Assembly: GCA_902728285.1 (NCBI GenBank)
Contig: CACVBU010000567.1
Coordinates: 1-64,000 of the forward strand
Reading direction: 5' to 3'
DNA length: 64,000 nucleotides
Source: Clytia hemisphaerica
Taxonomy: Eukaryota > Cnidaria > Hydrozoa > Leptothecata > Clytiidae
Shown in pieces: positions 10,509 to 49,600 of the stretch. A model generated the notes under the pieces. That model worked only from the letters and a program-made list of their open reading frames with translations, had not been told where the DNA came from and searched no databases. Every line of letters begins with the position of its first letter. Positions within the stretch are counted from its first letter, which is position 1. Both the position numbers and the translations under genes were made by a program.

Positions 10509-13500
10509 ATGGACAATGAGCCAATGAAAAAGAAGAAAAAAGGCAGCAAAAATAGAAAGAAAGGATGGCGAAAAAATGTAGATGTGGAGGATGTCGAACA
10601 GCACCTAGAAGATGCCAGAAGAGATGAAAGAACAGGGTACAAATTGATAATGTTTATAAAGGATAACATTGAATATGGCTATAATACAAATTTAGTTGTT
10701 TTACATGCAGATCATTACAAAAATGATATTGGTTGATCTTTAGAAAAAAATAATTTGAGGCTTGGTTGGATTTCCTCAGTGTATAAAGCTCAAACTTTGA
10801 ATTGAATTACATTTGCATAAAGCTTTTCAGGGGATATTGATTTCAGAGCTTTAAACTTGAAAATAGCTTTGTTATCTTGCTACTTTGCCAATACTATTTT
10901 GCAAAATAACTGTTTCCTTTATATCATACATAACCTTTTAAAATTGGGGTTAGTGTACTTTACGATGCACGATCCAACGATTCGCGATTCGCGATGCGCA
11001 TAAATTATGCATAAATTTTCATTATTTACGGATAAACCAATCAAGCTCATTCTCGGAAATTCACTCGAATTCGAGTTGAGGCGAGTTGAGGAATAAATAT
11101 TCGAGTTGTTCGAATCGAACTTTCGCACGTGCAGGAGAATGTCAACTGTTGTAGGGTCAGTTTGAAAGAATCAGGCAAATTGAAGAAATGGATCGTATAG
11201 AAGAGCTGAATTTCTTATTTTCTCTGCTCGACAGTGAAAAGGTAAGTCTCATTTGCTTCAACTATTTCTCACTCTAATAACATAACAAAAATGGTACCCA
11301 AAGCTTTGCTGTTTACAGCTGGGGAATCATGGTTGTTAACCCTATTATTATCAGGCTTTTTCGGATTTTGTATTCTCACTCATTCTGGTGTTTTCCACCA
11401 GCCTTGCATAACTTTTGATCTAGAAAAGGTATGGACTTGAAATTTGGCACAAATGTTCTCTATCATAAAAGAAGTTCATAGAAAAAAATTTGGGTTGATG
11501 ACGTCATCTTAAAGGTGATGACGTCATCACAAAGTTTCACAATTATCGCTGACCAATGAAAAAGTACTGTTCAATAAAATAGCAATCAAAGTTGAACGAA
11601 TGGAGATTTTTCAATTCTGTTTTAAATTTCTAAAAGCCAAAAATAATATCTTTAACATATTTGCCGGTGTTTACCATACTAATAAAATTAAGATTTAAAA
11701 TCCATGCAGAAAATGAGTAAATTTTTTCAAAAAATAATGACGTCATTTTTGATGACGTCAGCAGTTTTTGAAATTTTTTTAAATAATTTTTAAAATTTAT
11801 CATTAATACCTATAACCTGTCAAAATTTGAAGTCAGTTGGATGGCTAGATCAAAAGTTATGCTAAATTTAAGATTTTGGGATTTTACAGGGTTTTAGCTG
11901 GATTTTATGATATGCCTGCACAAAAAAGTCATAAAACCTGATCTGGTTGGTGTATAATTGTAAAATTTGGTATACATGCTGCTAATAGGATTATATTAAA
12001 AGTCAAAAACTTTCAGAGTGTTAAAAAAAATTTTCAGTGAGCTATTAGCAAAAGAGTGCCAGCCTGGTGGAAAACACACCCCCCCCCCTGATAAAAATAG
12101 GGTTAAGCGTTAAGAAGATGTATTAATCTACAACTTGTAAGTAGCTGTAAAAACTCTGTTCTGCTGTTTGCAGTACAAGACGTCCTCCCCATACATAGTA
12201 TTAATATCCAGGCCCTCCTTTTTCATGAGATCACAATGCCATTTTTATTTGATGTTTACCCCAGCTCTTTTTACTATCAATTTCTATGGTTATGCCAGTC
12301 TGGAAATGATGAGAAGTCCACACCGAATTGTTATTTGTTTAAATTGCAGCCAACGCCAAAAAAGTTCCACTCGTGGAACAGCAAGTGGATGTGGGCCTAC
12401 AGGGCTTACACTTCTGCTCCTTACCTTACGCCGATACGCCAAAAGGAATTTTACAGCCTCACGTCAAATATATTTGGTGGACTGTGCATCATTTCCAGAC
12501 TGGTGGTTATTCCAGACCCTCCAACTCAATACAATTGATAGGTTTTTCCAATCGATGGATTGGATATCGATTGGTTCCGATAATCGATAGACAATCGATA
12601 TTAAGGATTTTGAGGGAGGCTTGATTACCTATTGATTGATCGATTGGTCATTGATTGGCTTGTTAATGATCGATTGATTATCGATTGACTCTTTAAATGA
12701 GCGATTACACTGTAGAACAGATTACCAATCGTTCGCCAATCGATGATAATTATCAATCGATGATCAATCGATCAACAATCGATAGGTTGACCAATCGATA
12801 ATCAGGATTTTAAAGAAGGCTCGATTACCTATCGACCAGACTCGATCATTCGAACTAATCGAACTGATTTTCTAATCCAACTAATCGAACTTAATCGAAC
12901 CTAATCGAACGATTAAAGTTGGATTAGTCGAACTAATCGAACTTTCAGATTTTCTCCAAAATTGTGAGTGTTCGATTAAGTTCTATTAGTCCGATTAGAT
13001 TTGACTATGTTCGACTAGTTTGATTCAGATTAAGTTTGATTAGTTAGAATTAATGGAAGGACCTATCAAACTAATCCAACTAGTCGAACTTAATCGAACT
13101 AATCGCCAGACGACTTATCGAACTAATCGAACTCAAATTTTACCAAAAATTGTGAGTGTTCGATTAGGTTTGATTGGCTCGACTAATCGAACTCTAATCG
13201 TTCGATTAGGTTCGATCAAGTTCGATTAGTTCGATTAGAAAATCAGTTCGATTACAAGTTCGAATGATCGAGTCTGTCTGGTATCGATTATCAGAAGCAA
13301 TCGATATCCAATCCATCGATAGGTTATCGATTGGAAAAAGTTATCGATTGTATCGAGTGGGAGAGTCTGGGTAAATGGGGGTGGACGACACTGAATTTCA
13401 GAGGTTGAAATGATTTTGTAAATCTGGAATTTCCAAGACATTTTCTTAAAAATGAAGGGAAAACGCGTAATTTTCCAAGGCATTTTCTTAAAAATGAGAT

Positions 13501-16500
13501 AAAATGATGGAATTTCCAATACCTGTTAAAAAAATCAATCAATCAGTCAATTTCCAAGTATATATATTTTGAATTTCACATCGAAGTTCTGAGGCTTTAT
13601 TTTTTACAAAAAACCGTGTCGTCCACAGGGGGTAAACAGAAAATTTCTGGAATAGCTCAATCAGGATTAATTACCTAGGCTCAATTACGTACCTATCAAT
13701 TGATTGATGGTCATTGATTGGCTTGTAAATGATCGATTGATTTTTGATTAAGACTCTTAAATGATCAATTGGTTATCGGTTACTGCAGTACAGACTAACA
13801 ATCAATAGCCATTCGATGATGATATCTATGATATATCTATACCTATGTAAGATCAGACGTGATTAATCCATGGTGGCCAGCGACCCTTGAATTCCTTGAA
13901 ACCCTTGAAATACCCTTGATTTTTTTCCTGCCCTTGAAAATTTCCTTGAAACCCTTGAAAAATCAATATTATCTTAGGGACCCTTGAAGTGCAAGATTTA
14001 TACCCTTGAAATCCTTGAAATTTCAAATTTTCAGGCCATTTTCAGCCATAGAAATACAAAATTTTTCTCCACTGCGTGGGATATAAACATCAGTGAATCA
14101 AATGAGAAAACTTCTTTTGGAACCCTGAGATTCAAGGGTTATTCCACGTTTATTCTTTAGGAGACTTCTTCTTCTTCATTCTTTTGGAGTTTGCCCTTGA
14201 ACCTGTTAAGTGCGACTTGAATAAAATTAGATCGGCAGGTCTGGGTGATAAGATGGGTGGTTGTGAAATTGATTCTATCGTCTGAATTGTGTGCATTTTC
14301 AGCCAATCCAAAGCACTGAAAATCAAAAATTTTCTCCGTCGGGCCCAACTATAGTGGGCCCTCCTTTACCACAACTATAAGGAAAGTATCTGCTTGAAGA
14401 ATGCCTTTGAGATTATGTTGAAATCAAGGGCAAGGGATTGAGGAGACTGATTTGTTAGCTAGAAAGATTTCAAGGTCTTTGTGATTTTGTTAAAGAAAAC
14501 GTTTTAGGGGTAATTTGTGCATTTTAAGGGGGTTGAAAATTCAGCACTGGCCAATCAAAAATTCAAGCTTTCTCCTAATGTCGACAGATTTCCTTGAAAT
14601 CTTTAAAAACTAGCAAAGATCAACCACAAAACTCTAGAAACCCTTGAAAATCTGGGGTGGAAATCCCTTGAAACCCTTGAAAATTAGTCAAAAATGACCC
14701 TTGAAACCCTTGAATTTGTTGAAAAAAAGTGGTGGCCACCATGTAATCGAATAATTCAATTACCGAAGTCATCAAATTTAAAATTGAAGCTAATCAAAGC
14801 AATTATTTTTCAATTAATCGAACTCATCGAGGAGTAATCGAAGCTAATTGAGATCTGAAAAAGTTCGATAGATTTATAAACTTTAATTACCATTGATCTT
14901 CTTTGATTACCTTTGATTAATTTGATCGAAGTTATCAAAACTATTCAAACCTCAATCGAAACTAATCGAAGACTAATCGAATTCATTTAAACTATCGAAC
15001 TAATTTGAGTTTATAACATTTATTTTTAAAAAAGGGTGACCCACCCCCTATTTTGGTATCAATACCAACCGAGGATAACTCTTTTTTCTAAAAAATAGGG
15101 GGACCCACCCCCACCAATACCAACTTGACTTTTCAAAATTTTAAAGGAAAAAAAGACACCACCACCCGGCTATGGGTCTGGTACGGTTTGTGTAATTTAC
15201 GATGTGCGATCCAACGATTCACGATGCACGATGCACGATCCATGCATGATTTATGTCGATTTATGTTAATTATTTTAATTATGCACAAATAAGTTTTCAT
15301 AATGCTAGCTACAAACATCATATAACAATAACGAAAAAAAAATTAAAAAAAGAAGTGGAAATAATTTATCATAATCAGAAAGATTATAATAACTTATATC
15401 TTCTGTGTAGAAAAAACAAAAATTGATAGCGAGAGTTTGTTTTTAAAATGAAAGAAAAAGCCTTGACGTCATAGAAAAGTTTTGGCGCGAAAAATTTATT
15501 AAAAGAAAACTCATTTTTGTACGTTTATTATTTTTTAAGAACAGTGAATAAGGTAAATAAGGAATCATTGGCTACATTACTTTTGGCATGTTCTTATAAA
15601 AGCCTTTTACCAACAGAATGGCAACTGGTGTTTTTATCTATTTGATTTTTTCTCTGTTTGATGATCAAGTTAATTCATTTTATTTGATCTTTCTCAAAAA
15701 AGGTGAGTTTATACACGCGCTAAACGTCTTCCCCTAATTTACCACAACATTGTAAATTTTTGTTTATAACCCTGTCTCAATCCAATGCATTTGGTTGGTT
15801 TAATCGGAGAAACGTTTTTTTTTTAAGAAAGAAAGCAAAAAGGTTACAAGATATTCAATTCAAAGCATGGGCATGTTTTGATTTGATTTGATTGTCGAGG
15901 TTAAAATTTATACACGCATACTTTACATTGATTCTCCAGGAATACAAAAGAAGGAATTAAAACATGTGATTACTAAAACCTATAAATGCATAATTAGAAT
16001 AATTAACATAATATATGCATGGATCGTGCATCGCGCATCGTGAATCGTTGGATCGTGCATCGTAAATTACACAAACCGGGTCTGGTATCTGGATGTTGAC
16101 CCCCCCTGATTTATCTTGATGTAAGAATTTTAAGAAAATTATATTCTATTGGAAAAACTTTGACCTTTTTTGTCAAATTTTATTTTTGGGTGGCAAGCGC
16201 CCTCTGCACCCTATGTGGGAAAATTTGCAGCATTATTGTGTGCTACTTCAATAGAAATGTTAGCGTACCAATTTGAACAAACTCATAAGGGGGAAGGAAA
16301 ATTTTCTGGGGGGAACCAACCTGGAGGAAACTACAGATAAGATTTGAAAGCCAGTTATTTACCATCTAGAATTGCGAAGGTAGTGTATACAATTTCACTA
16401 CAATTTCACTGGAAATTGATTTCATTAGCATAAAAAGCTTTCATTTTTCCCTTGTACAGGAAAGGGTATGCGATGTTTGTTAGGTTTTTTAGGCTCTTAT

Positions 16501-19500
16501 ATTATGCAAATAAATGCATAGGAATAGAAATGGATCAAAAATGGTCCAGTAAGGCTAAAAAATATAGCCTAGAAGTCTGTCAACCCCTCTCAAATGAAAA
16601 TATTCGATTAAATTGAAGAGATAGTTCAAAATCGACTTGTTCGTCCGAACTTTAAATCGTGGAAAATGTTAAAATAACCGGAATTCTCAATATATTTTGT
16701 GAGAGATTGTAGTTTTACACTTTCTTCCCCCACGTCATACTCTTAGGTGCCAAATAAATGGGGGGTTGGAATAAACGAGAGTTTGGAAAATTTTTAACAA
16801 GCGCGGGTCCTTCATTTGGCACCTAAGAGTCAGTGCTGAAGAATATTCATATTTAGCAAAAGTCTGAGCTATTGGATGGATTTGGTTTTTTTGGCATGAA
16901 AGAGTCAATTTTCGCAGTGCAGTAGCAGAAAGCTGGGAGTTAAGGGGAGGTGTGATAATCAGACTTTATTAAACAGGGTTTTTCAGCCTTATGACCCCAG
17001 GAATTAAATGTTGATGTAGTAAAGATAGAATAAATCTTTTTTTGGAATTGGAAAGGCAATTAACCCAAGTCCATTTTTGTTTTACTTTCAGTATCACCGT
17101 ATGCCTTATGGCCCATTGGTTCATTACATTACACCAGAGCTTGATGACAAATTGGACCTTAGCCATTTGCGTGAAGCTTTTGCAGTTGACAATCATCAGG
17201 ATAGTATCACACTACAGGCTCAAGCAAGAGACTACCATATTGATCAACCACTTATTGTAGTAAATGAGTTTGATGACATAATTTATGAACAGTGCAAAGA
17301 AATTTTGGATGGTATTACTGGTGATACCCCAGCATGTCTAGTTAATGTTTTCCTGGATGAAGGAAAGAAATCTGTAAGTATTTTTTAATTCTTAGATAAA
17401 AGTAAACAGGGTTTTGAAACCACAATTTTTGGGCAACATAATTACCACTTTTGCAGAACAAGTTGATTTTAGAGATATTTAGTCGCTAATTTCATAAGTC
17501 ATTATCATTTTCAATGAAAATCAGTATTTAGCTTCTTCTATGTGCAAAGTCATTTAGTCGTTAGTTGTTTAGTTCTCTTTTATGTCTTTTCCAATTACTT
17601 GTAGAATAAATAAATTATTCTTCTTTTTCCTGGTAGTTGTTCAATAAAGCAAAGTATCCATGCAGAAGTCAAACGGAGGAGTCAAGTAATGCCCCTGATG
17701 GTTTTGAAACTACGCAAAATGACGACATTGTAAGTTGGAGGTGTATATTATATAGAAGTAGAAAATATTGGTTTTGCTGTCCTCTAAGCAAAACTACTTG
17801 AAACTTGCTGACCCAATTAAAAATCAATGTTTGTTCCAAGAGGCAATATCATACTGAAAAATTCCTGGATCAATAAAGCTTTTTTCACATGTACGTAAAA
17901 TTTTACTTAAAGTCTTAGGAAACCCCTTTCGTAGAGGAGCTTACGAAGAGTTTTGCTCCTCCGGACCATGCTGATGGCCGCTGTTCACATGTACGTTTGG
18001 TTACTTTGTGAAGGCATGTTTTCATTCGTAAAGCCCTCTAAAAATGACGTCATCGAAACATTCGATTCAGTTTTCGAATCTTTTCACGTTCGAAATGTAT
18101 CATTCAGTTAGGAACATTTTGCGAGTTCCTGTACGTGGCAGCAATCAAAAAAATCAAAGCGACACTCATAAAAAAATTATGTTCGTGTCATTTTTATTAT
18201 TTTTTTGCGTAGACAATACAGCAAATATATTAAATATTAGCAAACTTTGCCTTTAATGGGCTGTAAAATTATTTTGCAACGGTAGATTTTTTTCCAACTA
18301 TCAACAATTGTGGAACAATCCTATTTAAACAAAATTGACCAGCGGATTTTTATCTTTTCTTCTTCTTCATCTTCAATAAAGCACTCATACTCGACTGAAA
18401 TTAAGCACATAAGTTATTCTTATAAGTATTGATGTTCACGGAAAGCCTGTTTGCTGCGCGCTGCGATGGAGTGCATGACGTAACTCGCGCGGCAAATAAC
18501 TCTCCTTCTGTTGGATGGCAGTATGGGCGTTTTTGGCGTCACCACCCTCGAAACAGCGGGCGCCTTTATTTTCCTGCGATTCTGTCCGCCATTTTAAATG
18601 CAGTAAACACAATAGATTCAAAAGGGCGTGCTGAACGTGGAAAATCTTTGGTTTTGATCTCCTGTTTGGAAAGTTGCAATGTTTTCGATCGGAAAGGATA
18701 AGAAACTTATGTTTACAAGTGTCATTTAATTTTTGCTGGATGAGAGCTTGGCAGGACTCTGGATGGTGATCTTAACTGTCATTTGAACGTTTTTTACTTC
18801 TTTTTTTCTTCTTTTTTACGTAAGCCGCTTACGAAAAATTGCTTGTGATCGAAAATTTTTAAACCTAAGCAAATTTTTCATTAGCCCTTGCATAGATTTT
18901 TGAGCCTTACGTGAATGCTTAAGTGGAGTTTTTTCTCGTTACATGTACGAAGAATTTTCGTAACGTAAGAGAATGAATGAACACCAATTTTTTGTAAGGT
19001 CTTAAGTAAAATTTTACGTGCATGTGAAAACACCTTAAAAAAGAAATTTTCCAACCCAGTCAAGCAGTTGATTCATAACACTGCGACAGGTATCTGTCAT
19101 TTTGGAAAATTATTTTAGTAATTATATTAGTGCTCAAAAAGGGGTAAGCCACCCCATAAAACAGGTAATTTGTGGGGATTCTTCTAGATATATATAAGAT
19201 TTCACTGTCCAGATATTGTTTTTGTATTTAGCAAAAATTTCAAATTTGTTACGAATTTTTCAAAAAAGGTTTTTTGGTTCCTACACCACTTTTGTCATAG
19301 TTCACATAGTAACAGCATGACCCCCCGACCATGCCACTGACCGATCCAACTCAGCCACTGACCAACTAAACCCAAATTTAAAAAGTTATACCTCAAAATT
19401 TAAGTTGGACTGGACTGTCCTCTTTCCGATAAAAGTATTTGTTTTGTTTTTGTGAATGTTATATTACTCAAATTTTCTTTTTTTTTACAGGAGTCTTCCG

Positions 19501-22500
19501 AACCCTGTGATTTCTTTATGGACTCTTCAGTGTCGAATAACGGGATCTCATTGTCAAACACAGAAGGTGCCAACTTATTGCCAGATCCTGAAATTAATGA
19601 GGACATTGTTGTTGATAAGGTATATCAAAATACATTATTTTTTGTTTTTGTATAAAGCACAAGTTTCAACTTTTAAAATAATAAGAAAAAGATTTCTCTC
19701 TGGTACTTAGTAATTGGGGGGTCTAGAATAAGCATTTTCATTAGACTTTTCCTGATATTTCGCTGTTACACAAAAACATTCTTTATAACAATGCCCACCA
19801 TGAACCATGGTTCAATTGTCAATAAAACTGACTTTCTAAGCCAGAACTCTCTAAAAATCATTACATTTTTTTTCATGAACGCTGATGCAAAATTCCAAAA
19901 TACCAAAATTGTGACGAAGCCTGATTTTCAAAAAAACATTTTTTTACGGCCGAAAATGCCGGAAATCACCGTTTCTGCAGATTTTCATTGGATATTTTTC
20001 TTTATTATTACGTTGTTTTTTCACTCAAAAATGTTTTAAATAACAATATCAACCACCTTTCATGGTTCAATTGTTAATAAAACTGATTTTTGCAGCCGAA
20101 ACTTTCTAAAAATCACGGAAAATGACCCTTTTTAAAGAGATTTTCATTTGACTGTTTCCCCCGCTGTTTCCTTATATATTCTGGTTTTTTTTCGGTCCCT
20201 GTATGTTTCTTATTTTACTTTTCATTTCCATTCTATATACATCATAAGCAATGTGCTTGTTGAATATTGAATAAATTTTTCTCTTTTTTTTGTACTAGGA
20301 GTCTTCCAAACCTTGCGATTTCTATATGGGCCTTCCAGTGTTGAATAATGGGATTTCGCTGTCAAACGAGGAGATCACCAGCTTGTTGTTGAACCCTGAA
20401 ATTAATGGAGAATTGATCTGTGATAAGGTATAGAAATACGTGATTTATGTTTTAGGGGGTTTTATGATTTTATCATGATTTGAAATTATCATTAGGGAAG
20501 GGTTATCAATCAGGATTTTTGAACTTTTAGGGGGTCAAGCCATTAAGGGGGTTACGATTTCATACAGAGAGGGTTTTGATGTAACTTTTTAGTAACCCCT
20601 AGAATAGTTTTGCCTATCTTCGTAGTTTTTTATGAATTTATTTAAAACCATAATACTGTCATTGCAATTGCTCTTCCCTGAACAATCTACTCTCAGGTGC
20701 CCAATGAGTAGGGGGTTGAAACATTTTATCAAATTTCAATTCATGATATGCACCATTGCAATGTCTTCCGTTCCACCCAATAGCTGATTGGTTGAAAGTG
20801 ACGTATTGACTGCTTTTACGTCACTTCCAACCAATCAGCTATTGGGTGGAACGGAAGACATTGCAGTGGTGCATATCATGAATAAACGGAGGGGACCTAG
20901 TTGCCAGGCAGGGACTTGAAAATTGGGGATCTGGAAAACTCCGAGTTACGATGAATTGACATTTTATGACGTCATTTTCGTACAATTTTGACGTCATTGT
21001 GAAAATTTTAACTAGGTTGTTTTTCGAGCCTTTACGTTTTCGAGTTATTTGACATTTTTAACTCAGTTTCCACGATGACGTCCGGGGGTTGGAAAAAGTC
21101 GAAAAATTAACAAACGGGGGCCGTTTATTAGGCACCTGAGAGTGTCTAAACTGGATAAAATTTTCACCGTGGTCGCATGAGTTTTCTTCAGGGGTTACTA
21201 AAACCTTTGCAAATTTTGTAGCTAAGGGGGATTATAATTTTTTTATAGGGGTTTCGAACCCTTCACCTATATCAAGAAAATTTTAAGCAAGTCAGCCCAA
21301 TCCAATTCAGTATTGGGCATCTATTCGCTAGCTTCTCATTTTTTGCAGAAAGACAGATGACTAGGTTTTCTAAAAGATAATTCTCTATGTATTAAATACT
21401 GTCTAATTGTTTTATTTATAGGTTCCAACAAAATGTCAACGAAACATGAGCTTTATCGTCAATTTGAATGCCCTCAAAATGCAGTCCGATATTAGCGCAG
21501 ACGACAATGGCTCGTACATGAATGGTTACAGTCGACCAACATCTGTTACATTTAATGGCGACTCTTACATTATCTCCAAATATAACGGCACTTCGAACTC
21601 CTGCAAAACCTTTCATCGGAAAATCATAAGATTGCGAAAGGATGGTGGCGAAAATTACTTTCAATACTGCCTTTTGCAATACAATTTTGACGGGGAAGAA
21701 AGGAGCTTTACCGTGGCGTCTCACGGAAACGCCAAGAAAGCAGGCTCTTACAAACAGACACAAAGCAGTGTAAGAAATATGGTGAAGACGACCGGAAAGT
21801 CGAACAAGCCTTCAGAGACGATGAGGAAGGTAAATAAAGAACTGGGCGGCACACTAAAAGCCACATCATCTGGCTCCTTACCAAGGAACAATTGTCAGGT
21901 CCGCAATCTAAACAGAGCAAACAAAGGAGAAACATCTAAAAAGGACACTCTTGCTATGATGATGGAAGAGTGCAAGAAAACAATGAAATCTAGTAGATAC
22001 TTTATCCGCCGTGTCGAAGGGGCCCCTGAACCAATGTGTATTATCGGATCTGAAGCAGCATTTCAGGATTTAGACAGATATTGTTGTAAAATGCCTCAAG
22101 GGTTAAATTCAGTGTTAACAGTCGATCCGACATTCAATTTTGGTGATTTTTTTTTCACTCCGATAACATACCAAAATCTAGCAGTGTTGAGGAAGTCTAC
22201 AAACAAACCGAAGATTGATATGGGTCCAGCACTTATACACTACCGGAAGATGTTTTCTTCATATCATTACTTCTCATCGAGCCTCGTCGGAATTCACCCT
22301 GAATTAAGCGAGTTGAAATGTTTTGGAACGGACGGAGAAGCAACACTTCAATCAGCATTCTCGAAAACGTTCCCGTTCTCTGACCAGCTAAGGTGTTTTA
22401 TCCACTCCAAGAGAAACGTTGAAGAAAAGCTTAAAGAACTTGCACTTCCGATGACATCCAAACAGACCATCATCCACGACATTTTTGGCAAAGTAGAAGG

Positions 22501-25500
22501 AACCCACAAGTAAGTAAAGTTTGATTTTATTTCGGATTTAGAGAAAATCGCTATCTGTATAAAATTTGCGGTTGAGCTGCTCTGACTTGAAATTTCACGA
22601 GGACTTATTATCGCGGATGGAACAATATAGGAGATAACATGTTCACGGTTTTGTGCCTTTTGACTGCCAAATTATGCATGTGGCACCCCCAGCCCCCAGC
22701 GGCAGTTTTTAGAGGGTGCCAAAGAGGAAAGCGTGCCAAAAGGCGCCTAAAAACACTAATTTTGCCGCTCATTTCCCTTTTTTACCTCGCAGATTTTAGC
22801 TTAAGAGGAAGAATTGTCTAACATTTTCGCGCTCGCTTCGCTCGCGTCCTTTTGACACTAAATCTTTGAAGTAACAAGGCGCCAAATTACCAATTTTCTC
22901 ATTTTGCCTCCCTGTTGATGGAGCCACCAGCGCTTCTTTTATGCCAGCAAACATTTTGAAAGTAATAGTACTTAGTTTTGGTATTCTATAGTATTTTTTT
23001 AATTCCTAATCGACGTTTTTTTTCCTTTTTACTTCCCAGGATTGAGGGTTTGGCACATGCACCAGACGCCAACATGTTTGACATCTATGTTGAATCCATC
23101 AAGAATAAATGGGACGATATTGAGTTGCCTCATGTTCCAAAAAATCAATCACCCAAGTTTCACGAGTGGTTCACCAAAAATGTTGTGCCTTATATGAGGT
23201 CGCACATGTTGACTAACATCCGACAACGCAATGGCATCTCTGAAGATTTCTCCACAAACCAGAGTGAATCCCTTAACGCTAAAATTCGCCGGAAAACAAA
23301 GTATCAAGCACACGAGCTTCCAAAATTTCTCAACCTCATGCAGGAAGTATATGACACCCAATTGGAAGAAAACAGGTCAGCGTTTCACGGAGAAGGAGAT
23401 TTCAAAATATCCGAACTGTTTCCTAAATTCCAGATAGGAGACTCCTATTACAATCTTCCTGATGATGAGAGAATCACAGTTGAAAAAGCTTTCTATGAAT
23501 CTACCGTTTCTGATCAAGATGAAACACCCGACGAAGGTATCCCTGGAATCGATTGCACCTATTCGAAAAACATAATCGCAAAAGCAGAACGAATCATTGC
23601 AGCTGGTGGTGTCGTACCGTTTGCGGAAAGCGGAACATATCACGTAATAAACACCGATAGTTCGCGCCCCCATTATGTCAAACAAAAAAAAGATGGATCA
23701 TTCACATGTGACGACCGGGACCTACGCGCCGGTTGTGTGGGATTCAACGGAAGCGGTGTTTGTTCCCATACATACGCAGTCGCAAAGGTATCAGGCCAAT
23801 TAGATCGGTTTATGGCTTTTCTTAGAGCTAGTAACACATCTGCAAATTTGACCAACATAAGTAAATTTAATGTCAGCTCTGGTGCGGGTAAAAAGTCAGG
23901 GACAACCCGAAAAAGGTATATCCGAAAAGTCGAATCATCTACACCAGTTGGGGAAGTTGTAAAGCAAACTACATCCGATCATAAGCCGTATCGTTTGGTG
24001 TACTTAAAGGACCATCCTAAAGTCCGTAGTTGCGGTGGCTGCCCAGTTCCGATCGCTCGACCGAGTTCCAAAGAAGTTTTCCCCCCTCCTGATGACATTG
24101 CTATTACTCACATGGAGATAGCAACTTGGCGAGATAAGAACACCGGGCTCCTGAGAAAATCAAACAAGGCGAGCGCAAGATATTACCACCTGAGCCCTGT
24201 TTGCATAAGAAAGGGAAATAGCGGAGCAAACAAGGACTTCTCATTCGAACAGTTGGATTCCACCACCATCCAACTTTTAACAGAGCATAAGAACCTTATT
24301 AAAAAAAACTTTGGAGTGGATGTTTAGGTCTTGCTCAGTTCGTTGTTCATTCATTCATTCATGTTCGTATTGACTTTGTTTCATGTTATTTTCTTCATAT
24401 ATAGTTGACGCACTCTAATTCGATCTTCAAGGGGAATTGGATTCTCATCGAATGAGGGGAAACTCCCGAATAATAGAGCGTCGTACATGAGAGTTTCTTG
24501 TTGACTGTGACTTTCAATTTTATCGAATAAGGGAGCGCACCGAATAGTAGAACGTCGAATTAGAGAGCGTCGAATTAGAGAGCGTCAACTGTATAAGTTC
24601 GTTCATCCTCCTTTGGATAATCGCTAACAATATTTGTCAAATTACAGCGTTTGTTTAATAAATCACATTTTAATATTTGATTTACTATGGTTTGGATAAA
24701 CGACAATCATTTGTTTACACGCTTTGAGAATCGACTGCACCGTAATTCCACAAATTTGATTGACATCGTGGATTTTGCATTCTGAGATGGGTCATTTTTC
24801 ATTCTATATTTTACCATCAAGGTGTTAACGAGACTAATTTGTAAAACTAGTTATCTTTTAAGTCGGATATTAGAGTTATGTCTTAGAATTTCTTCATTTC
24901 CCAGTCATTTTCTAATCAGCGCCGCATTAGGAAGTGCGGCGCTTATTGGAGGGCGGCGCTCATTAGAGGGCGGTGGTCTTAAAATTTTTGAGGTTTTCGG
25001 TGCGGCGCTCTTTAGAGGGCGGCGCTCATCAGAGGGCGGCGCTAGATAGAGGAAATACGGTATCTAAAAGAAATCGAACGGACTGAGTCATTTCTGTCGT
25101 CCTATCGACAGTTCGTTAAATTAGTATTTTTTTAGTCTTGCTGCTAAATGTGTTTACGGCAATCGTGTAATTTAAGCTACATTCTTTATAGTTTGAACAA
25201 AATTCACGTTCTTGTCTTATCTTTTAATCTGCAATAGTTTCAAATGGAGTTATCTAACCGTAAATTTTTAATTTCGCCAGCAAATTTGTCATTGAAAATT
25301 GCTTAAAAACGTCAAGGCTTTAAAAGAGTTTGGTTAGTGTTTGAGATGTTTTTTATTTTTCATACTTTTATTAGCAGTTTTTTTAAAGTAGGAATTTTTA
25401 AAGCAGAGTCATTTTTAAAAACGAAAACTTATACATATTTTAGAACATTGTAGAAAATTGTCTTTTTCGTTTCCCTTTAGTGGCGCCTTTCCTTAGATCT

Positions 25501-28500
25501 GCTGAAATCTAGTTATCGGGTTATCTTGCGCCTAGCAATCCCCTTACTCACCACGGAGCAACCAATCTCGTAAATTTTCCTCTACACTTTTGTGCTTAAT
25601 TGTAGGGGGGGGTCACTTTGCATTTTTTGGGAAAAAAATCACCCCAATTTCACTTTATAATAACCCCCCTACTTTATGAATTTTTCCCAAAAAAGTCTGA
25701 AAAAGTGCCAAAACCTACATTTTCCTAGGGGTTTTTGGGAAAATCACCCCAATATCATTTTATAACGACCCCCCCCCATTTTATGGATTTTTCCCGGAAT
25801 ACCCACCTCCCCGCTTATTCCACCCCCTACAATTAAGCACAAAAGAGTACTCATCTTTCTTTGCGACGGGTTGGAAGAACATCTAACTCACTCTTACTTA
25901 GATAATCGTTGATGACTTTCAAGTGAAATTCTTTTCTTTCAACCATCGAAAACAATTCGTCGCATCAAAATAAGAAAGCCTTAAGTCCATTTTTGTAGTT
26001 TTGAGAAAATCAAGTTTAAAGGTTTGAAATGGCTGCCATTTTTGACCATGTTGGGCTAGCTAGCTGCTTTTTTGATATGAATATAAATGAAGAAAGATCT
26101 TTCAAGTTCTAAAGTATCAACATTGTCACTTATACCATTGCGGAGATATGAATGCTTCTTCATAGCATGTTTTTCGAGAATGGACTTAAACCTTTTTTTT
26201 CTATGTAAATTTCCTTGATTAAAACTGAAAATTTGAAAAATTTCCAGTGAAAAAGTGTCTTAACTCCAAAATGGACTTAAGACTTTCTTGCTTTAAACTT
26301 TCTTAACTTTTTTGAACTCTTTAACTAAAACCTTAATCTAAAAGGTCCTAAAGTCCAACTAAAATGACAATGGACTTAAGACTTTCTTAACTTGAGAAAA
26401 TTTCAAAAATAAAAATTCTTATTTTTCAAAAAACTTAAAATTAGGCCACTTTAGGTTGGTTTTTGATGGATTTAAGCCAAAAATTCGATAAAAAATGGGG
26501 TGTAAAGCATCGGTATGGTCATAACTCAATTTTTGAAAAAATGGACTTAAGGCTTTCTTATTTTGATGCGACGAATTGAGATGGGGTGTTTGTAATAAAG
26601 ACATAATCAAAAGCCACCGAACTAATGGCCTTTTGAGAGTTTCTGTTTCCTTTTTAAGTATTTCAGCGTTAAGTCCCTTTTTCCAAGAATTGGTCTTGAA
26701 AATACTATAGTGTATGGCTTGTTTTGCTCAACTTTGCAACCGTGCCAAAGCTAAAATAACCGGAAAATTCGGGGTCTTTGTATCTTTGGTGCGTTCAAAA
26801 TTTGAGTAATTTTAGGTAAAGTTCTGTCTTCTATACGGATTTTGCTTCACACTATTCCCTAGTAACTAACTATTCCCAGGTTCAGAAATTGAAATTTGCC
26901 CCCGCCACATTGCGCTGTTTGGATTATTAAAATCCGCATAATTACTGTAATTAGCATAATTTATGCGCATCGCGAATCGCGAATCGTTGGATCGTGCATC
27001 GTAAAGTACACAAACCCTTAAAATTGTTCACTTTTTCTAGAGGCTCAGCAGCTGATATTGAAAGCAAGGACTTGTTCTTTGTGGAAAAAGAAGTTAAAAA
27101 CCTCGGTAAGTTGGTTTATACAGAGCTCTTGTAGTCAGAATACTGGGGTCATTGTAGTCAGAATGAGTATAAAGAGTCTGGTTGACCAAGTAACGGTTTG
27201 TAGCTTCATAACATAATTGATATTGATATGCGTGGATTCAAGTTGAGAACAAATAAATATAATGAAATTTGACAAAGTATGAAAAATCACTGTACTTGCA
27301 TTAAGCTTGACTTGATCAAGGTCAGATGCCAACTGATTGCAATGAGTGATAGATTTTTATGAGTTATTTTTTTCTGAGAGGCCTTTGCAATTATTCTATT
27401 GAAACTTTAGTGCAATCTATTTGTTGGTGAAAATAATAATCTATTTCCCTGACCAAATGCTTTGATTAATGCAGATTTTTTTTTTGACAGCTCCCCCAAA
27501 AAAGTCCAAGCACACTTCTGAAGATGAAGAACATGACGAGGAAGTATATGTACCAAAGAAACAACAGTTCATGGAACAATTATACCGGGAGAAAGAAAAA
27601 GAATTGAAACGGAAGAAAGCTGAGAAAAGTAAAAAGGCAGTCAATGTCTGGGGTCAAGGTAAAAAAATAATTAGTAATATCGTTTCAATTACAAGTTTTT
27701 ATTGACCTTGCCGTAAGAAGGCCATACTTCAATTCAAGGGTCAAGGTAAAAAAGAAAATTTGTAATACCGTTTCAATTACAAGTTTTTATTGACCTTGCC
27801 GTAAGAAGTATGGCCCTCATTCTCTTGGCAAAGAATAGAAATATATATGATTTTATTTCATTGCGGGAGGGAAGCTCTGGAGAATTGGTTGCAAATGAAG
27901 GTACCAACTATATGAAATTTTTATTTTGTATAAAATATATATATTTTCTGAATTATTCAGAGGTGTTGACAGTGAAAGACGCTTATCTGGATTCGACTGT
28001 AAAGAAAGCAAAAGTGGTAAGACTTTTACCATTATTTTATTCAGTTGTACTTCAATGCCCAAATTGCTCATTAAATAGAGAAGATTTTACAGCGCTGTTG
28101 GGCGTTGTTTTTCTTTATATATAATAAACTAAGCATAATTCCAGTTCAGAACTGTTTTTTACTATCGAATGTTACTACGACAGAGAATTTTAGAGTTTTA
28201 GATTCACGTAACAGTTACTTTGAAATATAACACAAGTAAGCACTGACTAACTAGCATTGTCAACTGAAAACTTGGACTCATGTCAACATTTTGTTTGATA
28301 CAATGCTATATTTTTCTCTTCTTCAGAAACCAAATACAGTTGGAAGAGGGAAATTGGAAGGAGTTGGTGCTGTCTTACAACCTCTTCCTGGCTCGTCGTA
28401 TAATCCTGATTTTGACTCACATCAGGTTAGTTCTCAACTTCAGTTGAGCTACAATCTGACAATGTGTCTGTCTGTCTGTCTGTCTGTCTGTCACAAAAAC

Positions 28501-40698: not shown

Positions 40699-43600
40699 AT
40701 GAAGCGATTTGTATGGTTCATTTGCTTATTGTCGTGTTATCAACACGTCTCGTCAAAAGACGGTGAGAATATTAACTTGAAATTTTGTGTCTTTCTTTGA
40801 ATTACGTTTTAATTTTTTGGTTAGGATGCCTCAGAAACAGCCCTACCTTGATGTAGGTGTAATGATAAATGCAAATGCACTTTCAGTGTCAAAAGTTCCT
40901 GCGTCTCGGACGGATTTCCGTCTAAGCGGAGTATATAAAGAGGTTTCTTCGTCCCAATATTTGCATGATTTACCAAATTTCAAGAATATTTTTTAATATG
41001 CTTTGTAGAGTAGAATCCATTTTCCGTCTCAGACGAAAATCTTTGTTTTGACCACTTATCGACCTGACCACTGTACTCGAAAAGAACAATTTACTTATTA
41101 TGTGATTTTGACTATTTTTTAGAAAAGAACAGTGGTTCGGTCAAAGGGAATGAACTATCGGATACACAAAAAGTAGCCTTACTTCAATTACACAATGCAT
41201 TTCGATCCATGGTTCAACCATCCGCTTCTAACATGTATAAGATGGTTTGGGACGATGACCTTGAGCGTATTTCTAAAGATTTTGCTGGTAAATGTATAGT
41301 AGCTCATAATCCTGAGCGACATAAAGAAGCTAAACGATTTGATTGGGTTGGGGAGAATATTGCATGGGGTACTGGATCTTGTGGAGATAAAGATTGTGGA
41401 GATGTTTATGAGGGAGTTAAAAGATGGTTTACGGAGAGTAAAAGTTATAATTACGATAGTGGCGAATGTTCTGGTAAATGTACGCTTTATACTCAAATGG
41501 TGTGGTGGGAAAGTAATAAACTTGGTTGTGGCGCTAAACGGTGTGGTGACCGTACTATATTAGTTTGTAATTACGCACCGGGCGGTAATTATGTTGGACA
41601 ACGCCCTTATACTCATGGAAAACCATGCTCTAAATGTCCCGACAATTTAACGTGCGAAGATAATTTGTGTGTTGAGAAAACGCAACCGAGTGAGGAACTG
41701 ATGGATAAAACCTCTAAAAAATGCATTCAAGGTGTCTGCCCGGGAAGCAGTCATCAACAATCATGCCCAGCCCCAGGTACATGTCCTGCAATGGATGGGT
41801 GCCCGAACACGTGCAAGCTGCCAGCAACCACGCCCCTTCCACCTTGTCCTCCACCCGGCACTTGCCCCGCCTCTGCTCATTGTCCTAATACCTGTTTACA
41901 GCACCACGAGAAAACATGCCCACCTGCAGGGACTTGTCCGGCACCTGTAGGTTGTCCTGATACTTCCTGTAATGTAGTCACCACCAATGTTCCGTTGATT
42001 GCTTCAACACAAGTGGCACCCATGGCTGGTGGTAATCAAGGTTAGTGTTCATTTTTCATGCTCACGTTTTATATATAAAACATTGAAGTTTTTTGGAATT
42101 TTTAACTTTTAACTTTTTGATGATAAAGCTCCTTAATGTATTTTTAGGGGAAAATTAATTTTCAAAGCTAGAAAATGATGTTGATTACTTTTTCCTTTTT
42201 CTTTAGTTTTTTTTAAATTGCAACTGACAAAATCTCAAAAAGATCTTCTGAATTTTTTTCCTTTTAGCTACGAATCTTGGTCCTGGATGGACACCAACAC
42301 AGGCTAGACTCATGCAAATCGATACAGGGATGACCAGTCTAGTCTGGGGAATTGATGAAACGGAGAAAGCTTTTATTTTATCAGAAGAGAACACGTTACG
42401 ACCTGTCAATCCTTCCGCTATTACAAGTATACGTCACGTGACTGCAGGAGAGGCTGGTGTATGGTCAATTGATGATTCTGGACGAATTTACTTTCGAATG
42501 GGAACAAGCGCTTATAATAGACGAGGTATATTTCGTAAAAATACAGGTCGCAGCTGGTCGCAGTCATACATTTTCTGCTGCTCTGGCTTTTTTCAATTCC
42601 ACGTTTTTTTTTTCTGAAATTGTATGATACTCCTTCACTTGGTAGAGCACTCTTTAAATGACATATTTTAGTTTTAGTTTTGTATGGTCGAGCTTTACGA
42701 TATGTTAATCAATAGTCAGTCAATAGTCAGTCAATAGTCAGATTCCGCTCGATGGTCTCTGTTTAAAGCTTGTTATTTGGCCTATTTGGAGTAGAAATAG
42801 ACCTGTTTGCATTTTTTTTTCAATTTTTGTGTATTTTACAGACCAGAATAAAAAGGTCCTAAAATCACTATTTCTTTAATATAGTTTAATTTAGTCATGA
42901 TATTGATACGATGATTTACTAATTGTTTGCAAAAAAATCATCTCATGTTTATTAGGTGTTGAATGGAAAGCGATTCCAGGGACATTGAAACAAATCGATT
43001 CTGGACCACGTGGTACAGTATGGGGCGTCAATAGGAATGGCCATGTTTTTCGAAGAATCGGTATTCAGTAAGTCATAGTATACAGTTAACTCTCGCTTAT
43101 TCGAATTTTTTTGAATATTTCTGTAATTCGAACTTGTTTCCACTCCCCGACAAGGAGAAACGTATAGTGTTATGGATATCTTCTTAATGAATTATTGTTA
43201 CTAAACTTTGTCCAATTGCTAGTGGGGAGCAAAATTGCTTCCTCTAAGAAAAAATCACCCCAAAAAAAATTAATAGCTAATCCTTACTGTAGTCACTGAA
43301 ACCTTTCACCTTCCGAAATTGATATCCATATTATCATGGTAAACCTAAAAATGTAAAAGCAGCAAATGGACAAAACAGAAAATAAAAGAGACTGCTTATG
43401 TTGAACTTTTGTCATCTTTTCGTGACTTCGTCAAATATCAGCCTACATATTTCACGACGTGTTGAATATCGAAAAAAATTCATGTATCAATACTTCTTTT
43501 AAAAATACCTTTTTTGTTTCTTAAACTCCTATAGAAACGGAGATTTAGCCGGCACCGGATGGGAGCGTATCGAAGGTGAACTCAAATATGTTTCATGTGG

Positions 43601-46600: not shown

Positions 46601-49600
46601 CTAACGGTTTAAACGGGATCCGACCAAATGTAAAGGTCATTTTCAAAACGTAACAGATACGTTATTCGGGACGTATGCAGGACGTAAGAGATACGTCTTT
46701 TGGGCGTCTTTTGGACGTCTTTTGGGCTGGAAAGGTTAATAAGAAAACCGATTAAAACTAGTGAGGAGTTTCTATTTATCTACAAGCCTCTGAACGCACT
46801 TTGAAATCATAGATATATGGAATTTTAAAAAGCCTTGGTGGCTACGAGATCTTCAATGTCAGTCTCTAAATGTACAATGTTAGCGTTGAAACATAATGAA
46901 CAAAGTTCATTATTATATTAAAATTAATCACTTTACTCTGTGCTTGTGTAATCACTTTACTCTGTGCTTTTGTAATCACTTTTCTCTGCGCTTTTGTTCG
47001 AAACCTAGATTCAATCAAAACAAAAAAAGCTGATAAAATTATTCAATACTCCATCTTTCTAGACGATCACGATTTCACATGAGCTTGCACGTTCGTGTTG
47101 CGCCGTACCGGACAGCGTGTGTGCCATACCACGGGATTGTGCCGGTTACATTGAGTGCCGTGGTTATGATGGGAGTTATAAAGCATGCACCAGAGGGACG
47201 GTATTCAATCCACTCACCAATATCTGTGATAATCCAAGAAATGTCGATTGTGAAACCTCCAAACAAGGTTTGTCTTACTCGGAATTTCGATTCTTCATAG
47301 TAGTAATTATTTTATTAGACTTATTCATAAATATGCGCCATTGCAATGTCTTCTGACGTTACATGGATTCAATAGCTAATTGGTTGTAAGTGACGTAAAA
47401 TCAGTCACTAACGTCACTTTCAACCAATCAGCTGTTGAGTCCGTGGAAGACATTGCGTAATGATGCATATTATGAATTTAATAGTCTTCCTTCGAAACGT
47501 CGTAGTAGAGGCTTGGATAATCTCAATGAATAGTGAACAATTCAATGAAACATACAATGATAAATGTTTTTTTTATAAACATAACGCTTATAAGCATATG
47601 AAGGCCAGCCTGAAATATTTTTCATGTGGTCAATTTTGCAATGGGTAGATATAAAAATATAATATGATAAAGGCCAAATCAATTATTTTTCTACAATTTT
47701 GTACCAACCCATATATTTATTTCAATCCAGTTACACCAAACATGCAAAGTCAAATCCAACAGCCGCAAGCAGTAGCAACTTCGTTCATTCAACAACAACA
47801 ACCACCACAACAAGCTTTTACAGCAACCACAAGTGAAACAGAACCAGGTATTGAATCATAAATTTATTACAAGTTTGTACGAAAAACGACAAACCAGCAG
47901 ATAATAAAATATTTGAATTTTCAAATAAAACTGCAAGGTTGCTTGCAACACTATGAATGTATAATAGAGCTACCGTCAAGAAAAACAAACCGACAATTCA
48001 GAATATTCAAAAATTCAAAACCAAAATTTCTAACCAAATTCAAAAAATTCACATTTATTTCTTTTTCTTCAGTAGTCTCAGCACCTGTTACAATCGATCA
48101 ATCTCAACAACAACCACCACTAATCACCGCCCCTCCACCCGTTGTATTGGAAGCACCACCGGTACCACCTCCGCCACCCCCTCCCCCTGCACCCATGGTC
48201 CAAACCTATGCTCAACCACAGCCTGTACAGCAAATACAACAGTCGGTTATGGCTGCGCAACCTGTGACCGCTGAATCGAGTAATGAGAACATCCAACCAA
48301 GAGTGCAGCCACCCAAATCAGGTAAATAATAACGATAGTTATTTAGATTCGCCAAGTAAGTTCCAATCTGTCAATTATTTCAAATTTGAAAAAAAGATTT
48401 CTTCACATTGAATCGGAGAGAATATTTGGTCAAAACTTTCAAATATTTAAAATCTTTCGTAATTGAGAAATGTTTTCATCAGAAGTCTCAATCTTGGTCG
48501 AAAAAATAATTGTTGAAAAGTCTTTCGTCAAATACTTTAACTTGGGAAAGTGTTTCGTCAAATACTTTGAATGTGATCTTATTTTAATTTGAGAAAATCT
48601 TTCGTCAAATTATCTTGAGAAAATCTTATACTTGAAAATCTTTCGTCAAATACTTTGAATTTGAGAAAATCTTATTTTAACTTGAGAAAATCTTTCGTCA
48701 AATACTTAAAAATCTTTCGTCAAATACTTTGAATTTGAGAAAATTTTTTGAGAAAATCTTTCGTCAATACTTAAAATCGCTCGTCAAATACTTTGAATTT
48801 GAAAAGAAAATCTTTCGTCAAATACTTAAAAATCTTTCGTCAAATACTTTGAATTTGAGAGAATCTTTTGAGAAAATCTTTCGTCAAATACTTAAAAATC
48901 TTTCGTCAAATACTTTGAATTTGAGAAAATCTTTTGAGAAAATCTTTCGTCAAATACTTAAAAATCTTTCGTCAAATACTTTGAATTTGAGAAAATCTTT
49001 CGTCAAATACTTAAAAATCTTTCGTCAAATACTTAAAAATCTTTCGTCAAATACTTTGAATTTGAGAAAATCTTTCGTCAAATACTTAAAAATCTCTCGT
49101 CAAATTAAAAAATCTTCGTCAAATATTTTGAATCTTGAGAGAAAATCTTTTGAAAAAATCTTTCGTCAAATACTTAAAAATCTCGTCAAATACTTTGATT
49201 TCGAAATACTTTTGAGAAAATCTTTCGTCAAATACTTAAAAAAATCTTTCGTCAAATACTTTGAATTTGAGAAAATCTTTCGTCAAATACTTAAAAATCT
49301 TTCGTCAAATACTTAAAAATCTTTCGTCAAATACTTTGAATTTGAGAGAATCTTTTGAGAAAATCTTTCGTCAAATACTTAAAAATCTCTCGTCAAATAC
49401 TTTGAATTTGAGAAAATCTTTTGAGAAAATCTTTCGTCAAATACTTAAAAATCTTTCGTCAAATACTTTGAATTTGAGAAAATCTTTCGTCAAATACTTA
49501 AAAATCTTTCGTCAAATACTTTGAATTTGAGAAAATTTTTTGAGAAAATCTTTCGTCAAATACTTAAAAAAAATCTTTCGTCAATACTACTTAAAATCTT

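What the first reader, a model, noticed from the sequence alone, without database searches (positions are those of the whole stretch)
10947..27017. Complete, possibly active 16-kb MULE inside a ribosome-biogenesis gene
Seen directly: 64-bp TIRs with one mismatch, a perfect 9-bp target duplication, and a seven-exon gene that stays in frame for 1,020 codons with the DDE triad (D464, D533, E668) and a SWIM-like Cys/His cluster. Known: these are the hallmarks of Mutator-like elements, which usually span only a few kb. At 16 kb, with six introns and a 210-residue unrecognised N-terminal region, this is an unusually large and complete animal MULE. Inference: it may represent an undescribed family.
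Basis: partly seen in the sequence, partly recalled or inferred. Interest (0 to 1): 0.92.

Follow-up and report, generated by a model that had tools for sequence, protein, structure and literature searches.

The report
Large Mutator transposon in a jellyfish
This is a large cut-and-paste jumping gene of the Mutator type that sits in an intron of a ribosome-assembly gene of what is almost surely a jellyfish, with a few near-identical copies and short followers elsewhere in the same genome; some distant cousins carry a protein kinase joined to the jumping enzyme, which is unexpected.

Summary
Window 10947-27017 has 64-bp inverted repeats (98%) and a perfect 9-bp target duplication. The seven-exon model gives 1020 codons, and the DDE triad is invariant in every aligned relative covering it. 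A modelled relative's catalytic domain is closest to the transposase ISCth4. It is a Mutator-like element (MULE), not a domesticated locus. The genome, Clytia hemisphaerica by inference, holds exon 6 of this family at 5 places, copies about 1% apart, two with intact frames and three with 9-bp duplications. Short followers share the ends: 12 of 14 complete loci have exact duplications. An RNA-seq-derived protein confirms splicing of the last intron in a sister copy.

Corrections: 2.4 kb of the 16 kb is later nested inserts, so the shared element is 13.66 kb. The first 143 residues (exons 1-3) lack support. The host gene is NOP53; the element lies in intron 1, 23 nt before the acceptor.

New lead: two homologues carry a kinase ahead of the same transposase, a third its tail, and two Clytia loci repeat that order. 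The window family lacks it. Joint mobility was not shown.

The parts
10938..10946 (.). left target site duplication TTAAAATTG
27018..27026 (.). right target site duplication TTAAAATTG
10947..27017 (+). whole MULE insertion, 16,071 bp (13,659 bp shared with at least one other copy)
10947..11010 (+). left terminal inverted repeat, 64 bp
   Evidence: I4
26954..27017 (-). right terminal inverted repeat, 64 bp
   Evidence: I4
11188..11241 (+). exon 1 (ATG), predicted only
   Evidence: present in the 4 other exon-bearing copies; no homologue found
17092..17373 (+). exon 2, predicted only
   Evidence: no homologue found
17637..17729 (+). exon 3, predicted only
   Evidence: no homologue found
19491..19619 (+). 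exon 4, tandem duplicate of exon 5
   Evidence: exons 4 and 5 find each other at 74-76% nt in the copies
20299..20427 (+). exon 5, linker homologous to P0002, P0003, P0010
21422..22509 (+). exon 6: N-terminal part of transposase, D464 and D533, C554/H557
   Evidence: splice to exon 7 matched by transcript-derived protein P0020 of a sister copy
23040..24327 (+). exon 7: E668, SWIM-like C815/C824/C833/H835, C-terminal Cys/His cluster, stop
15184..16078 (.). nested 895-bp non-autonomous element with related TIRs and 9-bp TSD GGTCTGGTA; window copy only
   Evidence: (I2)
11340..12101 (.). later insert absent from the other fetched copies (762 bp; TTAA at the borders)
20741..20880 (.). later foldback insert (140 bp, 67-nt arms 97% complementary)
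   Evidence: (I3)
25958..26573 (.). later insert (616 bp, 42-nt perfect inverted repeats)
   Evidence: (I7)
10509..10636 (+). host gene NOP53, first coding exon
   Evidence: (PF07767 E 2.9e-10)
27041..27105 (+). host gene NOP53, second coding exon; its acceptor ends 23 nt after the element

Best explanation
It is an autonomous, recently mobile Mutator-like DNA transposon family, in a genome that is almost surely that of the hydrozoan Clytia hemisphaerica. The spliced gene makes a transposase with an RNase H-like DDE core, a CxxH motif, a SWIM-like finger and a C-terminal Cys/His cluster. By analogy with studied MULEs it binds the 64-bp TIRs, cuts the element out and joins it to a 9-bp staggered target (inferred). 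The same enzyme, or a close sister, moves about 0.9-kb followers that share only the ends (inferred). The window copy landed in NOP53 intron 1 just upstream of the 3' splice site. Shown here: the ends, TSDs, copies, open frames, catalytic residues, fold match of a relative, constraint on exons 6-7, and splicing of intron 6 in a sister copy. Not shown: transposition, expression of the window copy, and the role of exons 1-4.
Against: The window protein is below the Pfam gathering scores (MULE 16.9 bits against 27.6). Constraint is not significant for window-C359 (p=0.25) or window-C850 (p=0.5), both broken copies. Three of five exon-bearing copies are broken, and C359 has no TSD. The followers' ends are only 83-92% like the autonomous ends, so another transposase may move them. 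P0020 begins in exon 6, so the one known transcript does not support exons 1-5, and it fits C850 better than the window copy. No empty site was found; only the right flank was searched.
Confidence: 0.93

Rival explanations
1. The locus is a domesticated transposase gene kept by the host, with the TIRs as relics.
For: Open frame and constraint on exons 6-7.
Against: Perfect TSD and near-perfect TIRs; five exon-bearing copies at different sites, three with different TSDs, about 1% apart; two copies open, three decayed, as for a mobile family.
Confidence: 0.03
2. A dead family: it was mobile recently but all copies are now silenced or defective in a way not visible in the sequence; the short followers are moved by a sister transposase.
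For: Follower ends differ by 8-17% from the autonomous ends; a second family, about 59% identical in protein (245 of 413 aligned), is in the transcript set (P0023); the long copies carry nested inserts.
Against: Two intact frames, near-perfect TIRs, exact TSDs, and a sister copy represented in the transcript set.
Confidence: 0.4
3. The true protein starts at M238 in exon 6; exons 1-4 are a modelling artefact or belong to an alternative transcript.
For: P0020 starts at that M; P0001 and P0012 open there too; exons 1-5 show no excess constraint (6/687, p=0.58); no homologue of residues 1-240 was listed.
Against: Exon 5 and its join to exon 6 are homologous to the linker of P0002, P0003 and P0010; the modelled borders are GT-AG and keep frame for 1020 codons.
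Confidence: 0.4

Closest known systems
Mutator-like elements (MULE superfamily), animal members such as Muta1 of Aedes aegypti (PMC5225508, passages seen)
   Same: DDE transposase, inverted repeats, 8-9 bp TSD, several near-identical full copies
   Different: Muta1 was shown active in yeast; per the passages 13 of 14 Aedes families have an N-terminal FLYWCH finger and Muta6 a C-terminal SWIM. Here a SWIM-like finger, seven exons, and 13.66 kb.
Ghost clade, cnidarian sub-group (Dupeyron et al. 2019, PMC6446971; abstract, section 4 parts 1-2 of 3 and passages seen)
   Same: Cnidarian MULEs; SWIM listed for the arthropod Ghost group
   Different: Ghost-Cnidaria is listed with a 177-bp TIR and no TSD stated; no complete Ghost element was recovered there. 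No Ghost sequences were at hand, so clade membership was not tested.
ISCth4 (an IS256-family insertion sequence; the family label is recalled, though PMC5225508 calls IS256 the prokaryotic family related to MULEs)
   Different: Bacterial; 13% identity over the aligned part; the model is of relative P0001, not of the window protein
TRADD-N (DEDD2 clade) fusions to Mutator/Mule transposons (PMC8195603; passages and section 11 seen)
   Same: Host-type domains joined to MULE transposases have been reported in animals
   Different: Those are death-pathway domains; the relatives here carry a protein kinase, and neither was found in the window family

Membership tests
Mutator-like element (MULE) | DDE transposase with Mutator-type catalytic domain | tested here: met
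   D464/D533/E668 invariant; relative P0007 just passes the PF10551 cut-off, 27.7 against 27.6; window exon 6 alone is below it, 16.9; best fold match of P0001 is ISCth4
Mutator-like element (MULE) | Terminal inverted repeats | tested here: met
   64 bp, 98%
Mutator-like element (MULE) | Target site duplication of 8-11 bp, mostly 9 | tested here: met
   9 bp in window, C338 and C850 (the last with one extra C); C359 none; 12 of 14 complete followers exact at 8-10 bp, the other 2 with one mismatch
Mutator-like element (MULE) | Zinc finger (SWIM, FLYWCH, CCHC or C2H2) in many members | tested here: inconclusive
   C815-C824-C833-H835 invariant in 13 of 13, but the Pfam SWIM model matches only 1 of 12 relatives, at E 0.78: SWIM-like by pattern
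Autonomous, active MULE | Transposition observed | not testable with these tools
   no bench data; sequence signs only
Ghost clade of MULEs | Groups with Ghost in a transposase tree | not tested
Undescribed family (absent from Repbase/Dfam) | No entry with the same TIR or transposase | not testable with these tools
   no such library here; proteins of the family without a functional name exist in public sets
Kinase-carrying MULE relatives | Protein kinase coded upstream of the transposase | tested here: not met
   no significant tblastn match of the kinase parts of P0002 and P0003 in the window or in 5 fetched copies (best E 6.3); met in P0002 and P0003; P0014 has the kinase tail only, 26.9 bits against a cut-off of 31.7

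The most novel reading that the evidence does not exclude
The window family is a kinase-less branch of an animal MULE lineage whose ancestral mobile gene joined a protein kinase, and a second conserved domain, to the transposase. In P0002 and P0003 the kinase keeps its lysine, HRD and DFG motifs. Two diverged Clytia loci (C417, C120) repeat the order kinase then transposase on one strand. The kinase would travel inside the element and tune transposition or host signalling, and the window family replaced that end with new exons.
Probability: 0.35. Interest if true: 0.8.

Novelty: new member of a known kind. Interest (0 to 1): 0.5.

Why it matters
Complete MULEs from cnidarians are little described: Dupeyron et al. 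recovered no complete Ghost element, the group with cnidarian members that they newly define (PMC6446971, section 4), and a survey of 100 animal genomes calls MULEs rare there (PMC8277862, passages). [quoted passage not shown] Clytia is a laboratory jellyfish, so activity can be tested directly. The kinase relatives raise a testable question: does a transposon encode a signalling enzyme with its transposase?

Tried and rejected
Domesticated locus: rejected on multi-copy TIRs and TSDs. Captured host gene in the N-terminal region: Pfam and PDB sequences gave nothing (the one PDB row, E 0.5, is noise). The protein search with residues 1-240 scored none of 2019 candidates at E up to 1, but it also failed to list P0002, P0003 and P0010, which share the linker, so its silence is weak. 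Kinase remnants in the window family: none significant. Empty site or haplotig of NOP53: the right flank matches only itself; the left flank was not searched. PDB profile search with A1: no relative at E up to 1 that makes sense (3 rows, best 0.1). The window N-term is not similar to the middle domain of P0014 or to C417. A TIR pair enclosing kinase plus transposase at C417 was not found within the 12 kb fetched; outer DNA and most of C120 could not be fetched. Literature on kinase-MULE fusions: searches (3 of 3 papers listed; 20 of 160 listed; 15 of 46 listed) showed none that I recognised as such; subscription journals are not in that library. Dupeyron's main text has no occurrence of 'kinase', 'intron' or 'exon'. 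Clytia, coral or hydrozoan MULEs: searches (3 of 3; 6 of 6; 12 of 540; 8 of 72), listings only apart from PMC6446971, PMC8195603 and PMC9168764, showed no paper on Clytia MULEs. PMC9168764 (passages) gave no element length. In one search I first fetched the wrong side of the C691 end; one search fetched the right one. An earlier count gave 15 complete followers and 13 exact TSDs; a recount gives 14 and 12, used here.
Full report
WHAT IS THERE. The element runs from 10947 to 27017 between two copies of TTAAAATTG. Its 64-bp ends are 98% complementary. I rebuilt the seven exons at 11188-11241, 17092-17373, 17637-17729, 19491-19619, 20299-20427, 21422-22509 and 23040-24327: 3063 nt, 1020 codons and a stop, introns GT-AG, the last in a different phase from the others.

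HOST. One homologue, P0022, is named by its source as a Clytia hemisphaerica protein. Its longest contig has 1,930,919 bases, the exact length of contig C455 of this genome, and it matches the C455 copy at 100% over two of its three aligned pieces and 98.9% over the third. The genome is therefore almost surely that hydrozoan (taxonomy).

COPIES. The 74-base left end finds 42 places, with 40 of 245 candidates scored, so a lower bound; 11 places are 97-100% identical. Exon 6 DNA is at 5 places: C394 (window), C338, C455, C850 and C359, where it is split; 6 of 6 candidates were scored. C691 and C542 hold right-end pieces without any of the exons in what was fetched; the C542 piece lies at the start of its contig. 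TSDs: C338 GGTAGAACC on both sides; C850 CCAACAATG with one extra C; C359 none; C455 has lost its right end. Noncoding DNA differs by 0.99-1.46% among the five copies, and by up to 2.07% with the C691 piece. The 3063-nt frame is open without gaps in the window and C338; it is broken by small deletions or one-base changes of length in C850, C455 and C359. Splice sites of the other copies were not checked one by one.

SIZE. Four stretches of the window copy, 2412 bp in all, occur in no other fetched copy, so the shared element is 13,659 bp. One of them, 15184-16078, is itself a follower with related ends and its own 9-bp TSD GGTCTGGTA. Other copies have their own inserts: C850 spans 39 kb, and C359 holds what looks to me like a reverse-transcriptase frame inside its last intron (no family search was run on it).

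FOLLOWERS. 31 of the 42 places have ends 83-92% like this one; I fetched 20 loci, which cover 22 of the 31. 14 of the 20 loci have both ends 0.2-0.95 kb apart; 12 of these 14 have exact 8-10 bp TSDs, and two have one mismatch. Two of the 12 (L027, L028) share the same TSD and may be one insertion copied with its surroundings. The script allowed 48 combinations of length and offset; by my own arithmetic a chance exact match is then below 0.001 per locus. The ends differ enough that these followers may be moved by a sister transposase.

SELECTION. Window against C338: exons 13/3063, noncoding 124/10239, p=5.7e-5; exons 6-7 alone 7/2376, p=1.4e-5. Window-C455 gives p=0.0045 and C455-C338 p=0.00057. 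Window-C359 (p=0.25) and window-C850 (p=0.5) show nothing. Exons 1-5, tested for window-C338, show no constraint (6/687, p=0.58). pN/pS is 0.23 for window-C338, on 7 synonymous and 6 other changes, and 0.74 for window-C850. The numbers are small.

N-TERMINAL REGION. Exon 5 (residues 187-229) matches the linker ahead of the transposase in P0002, P0003 and P0010; exon 4 is its tandem duplicate. For exons 1-3 (residues 1-143) no homologue was found, with the limit told under Tried and rejected. The transcript-derived protein P0020 starts at M238 and runs through the exon 6-7 junction without a gap, 433 of 438 identical; it fits C850 best. TCONS names are Clytia transcript identifiers from a TopHat2/Cufflinks set (PMC12221839, passages).

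HOST GENE. The flanking exons belong to NOP53 (PF07767, E 2.9e-10 and 1.8e-11 for two frames). Exon 1 ends at 10636 and exon 2 starts at 27041, and they join in frame. The element has the same direction as the gene. Its right end is 23 nt before the acceptor, 9 of them the TSD, so any branch point farther upstream was displaced; that the duplicated TTAAAATTG may serve instead is a guess. The right flank has no second match in the genome.

KINASE RELATIVES. P0002 and P0003 carry Pkinase (E 1.5e-27 and 2.7e-29) ahead of the linker and transposase, with lysine, HRDLK, DFG and APE motifs. P0014 has the tail of the kinase (26.9 bits, below the cut-off of 31.7), a further stretch and the same linker. 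In this genome P0003 finds 35 matches, 35 of 272 candidates scored. At C417 a kinase frame (1181668-1182399, minus; Pkinase E 3e-26) lies upstream of a MULE-like transposase frame (1174439-1175998, minus); at C120 a kinase (205052-206077, minus) lies upstream of a transposase match (197030-198628, minus). The two kinases are 54% identical to each other and 32-34% to P0003; C417 also has a stretch like the second domain of P0014 (30%, E 2.9e-13). Six further kinase matches on five contigs have no transposase match listed on the same contig. In C417 the kinase has DLG in place of DFG. The C417 transposase frame matches PF10551 only weakly (15.5 bits). I found no inverted repeats around the C417 pair in the 12 kb read, so linkage within one mobile unit is unproved there; in P0002 and P0003 it rests on single predicted proteins.

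VERDICT. An ordinary kind of element in an unusual state: complete, large, intron-rich, young and still open. New member of a known kind; the kinase relatives are the more surprising lead.

Noticed in passing
G000:C417:1172501-1184500 (L064, L065) and G000:C120:197030-206801 (L066 in part): Protein kinase frame upstream of a MULE-like transposase on the same strand, twice, in diverged copies, with a second conserved domain at C417; same order as in homologues P0002, P0003 and P0014.
   Followed up: partly
window 19491-20427: Exons 4 and 5 are a tandem exon duplication (43 codons each), and the intron between them holds a pair of 93-nt direct repeats (D4); could be alternative exons.
   Followed up: partly
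window 10637-27040: The insertion lies 23 nt upstream of the NOP53 intron 1 acceptor; without it the intron would be about 324 nt (coordinates).
   Followed up: partly
G000:C373:260937-266169 and G000:C656:16532-22540: Related transposases in the same genome with long open frames; transcript-derived protein P0023, about 59% identical, shows that a sister family is in the transcript set. Whether P0023 comes from one of these two loci was not checked.
   Followed up: no
window 41068-42614 and 47063-47353: CAP domain, tectonin and CBM_14 chitin-binding frames downstream of NOP53.
   Followed up: no
window 48681-50661: Long repetitive stretch that reads as repeats like NLSSNTLNLRKSFEKIFRQILK in more than one frame.
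   Followed up: no
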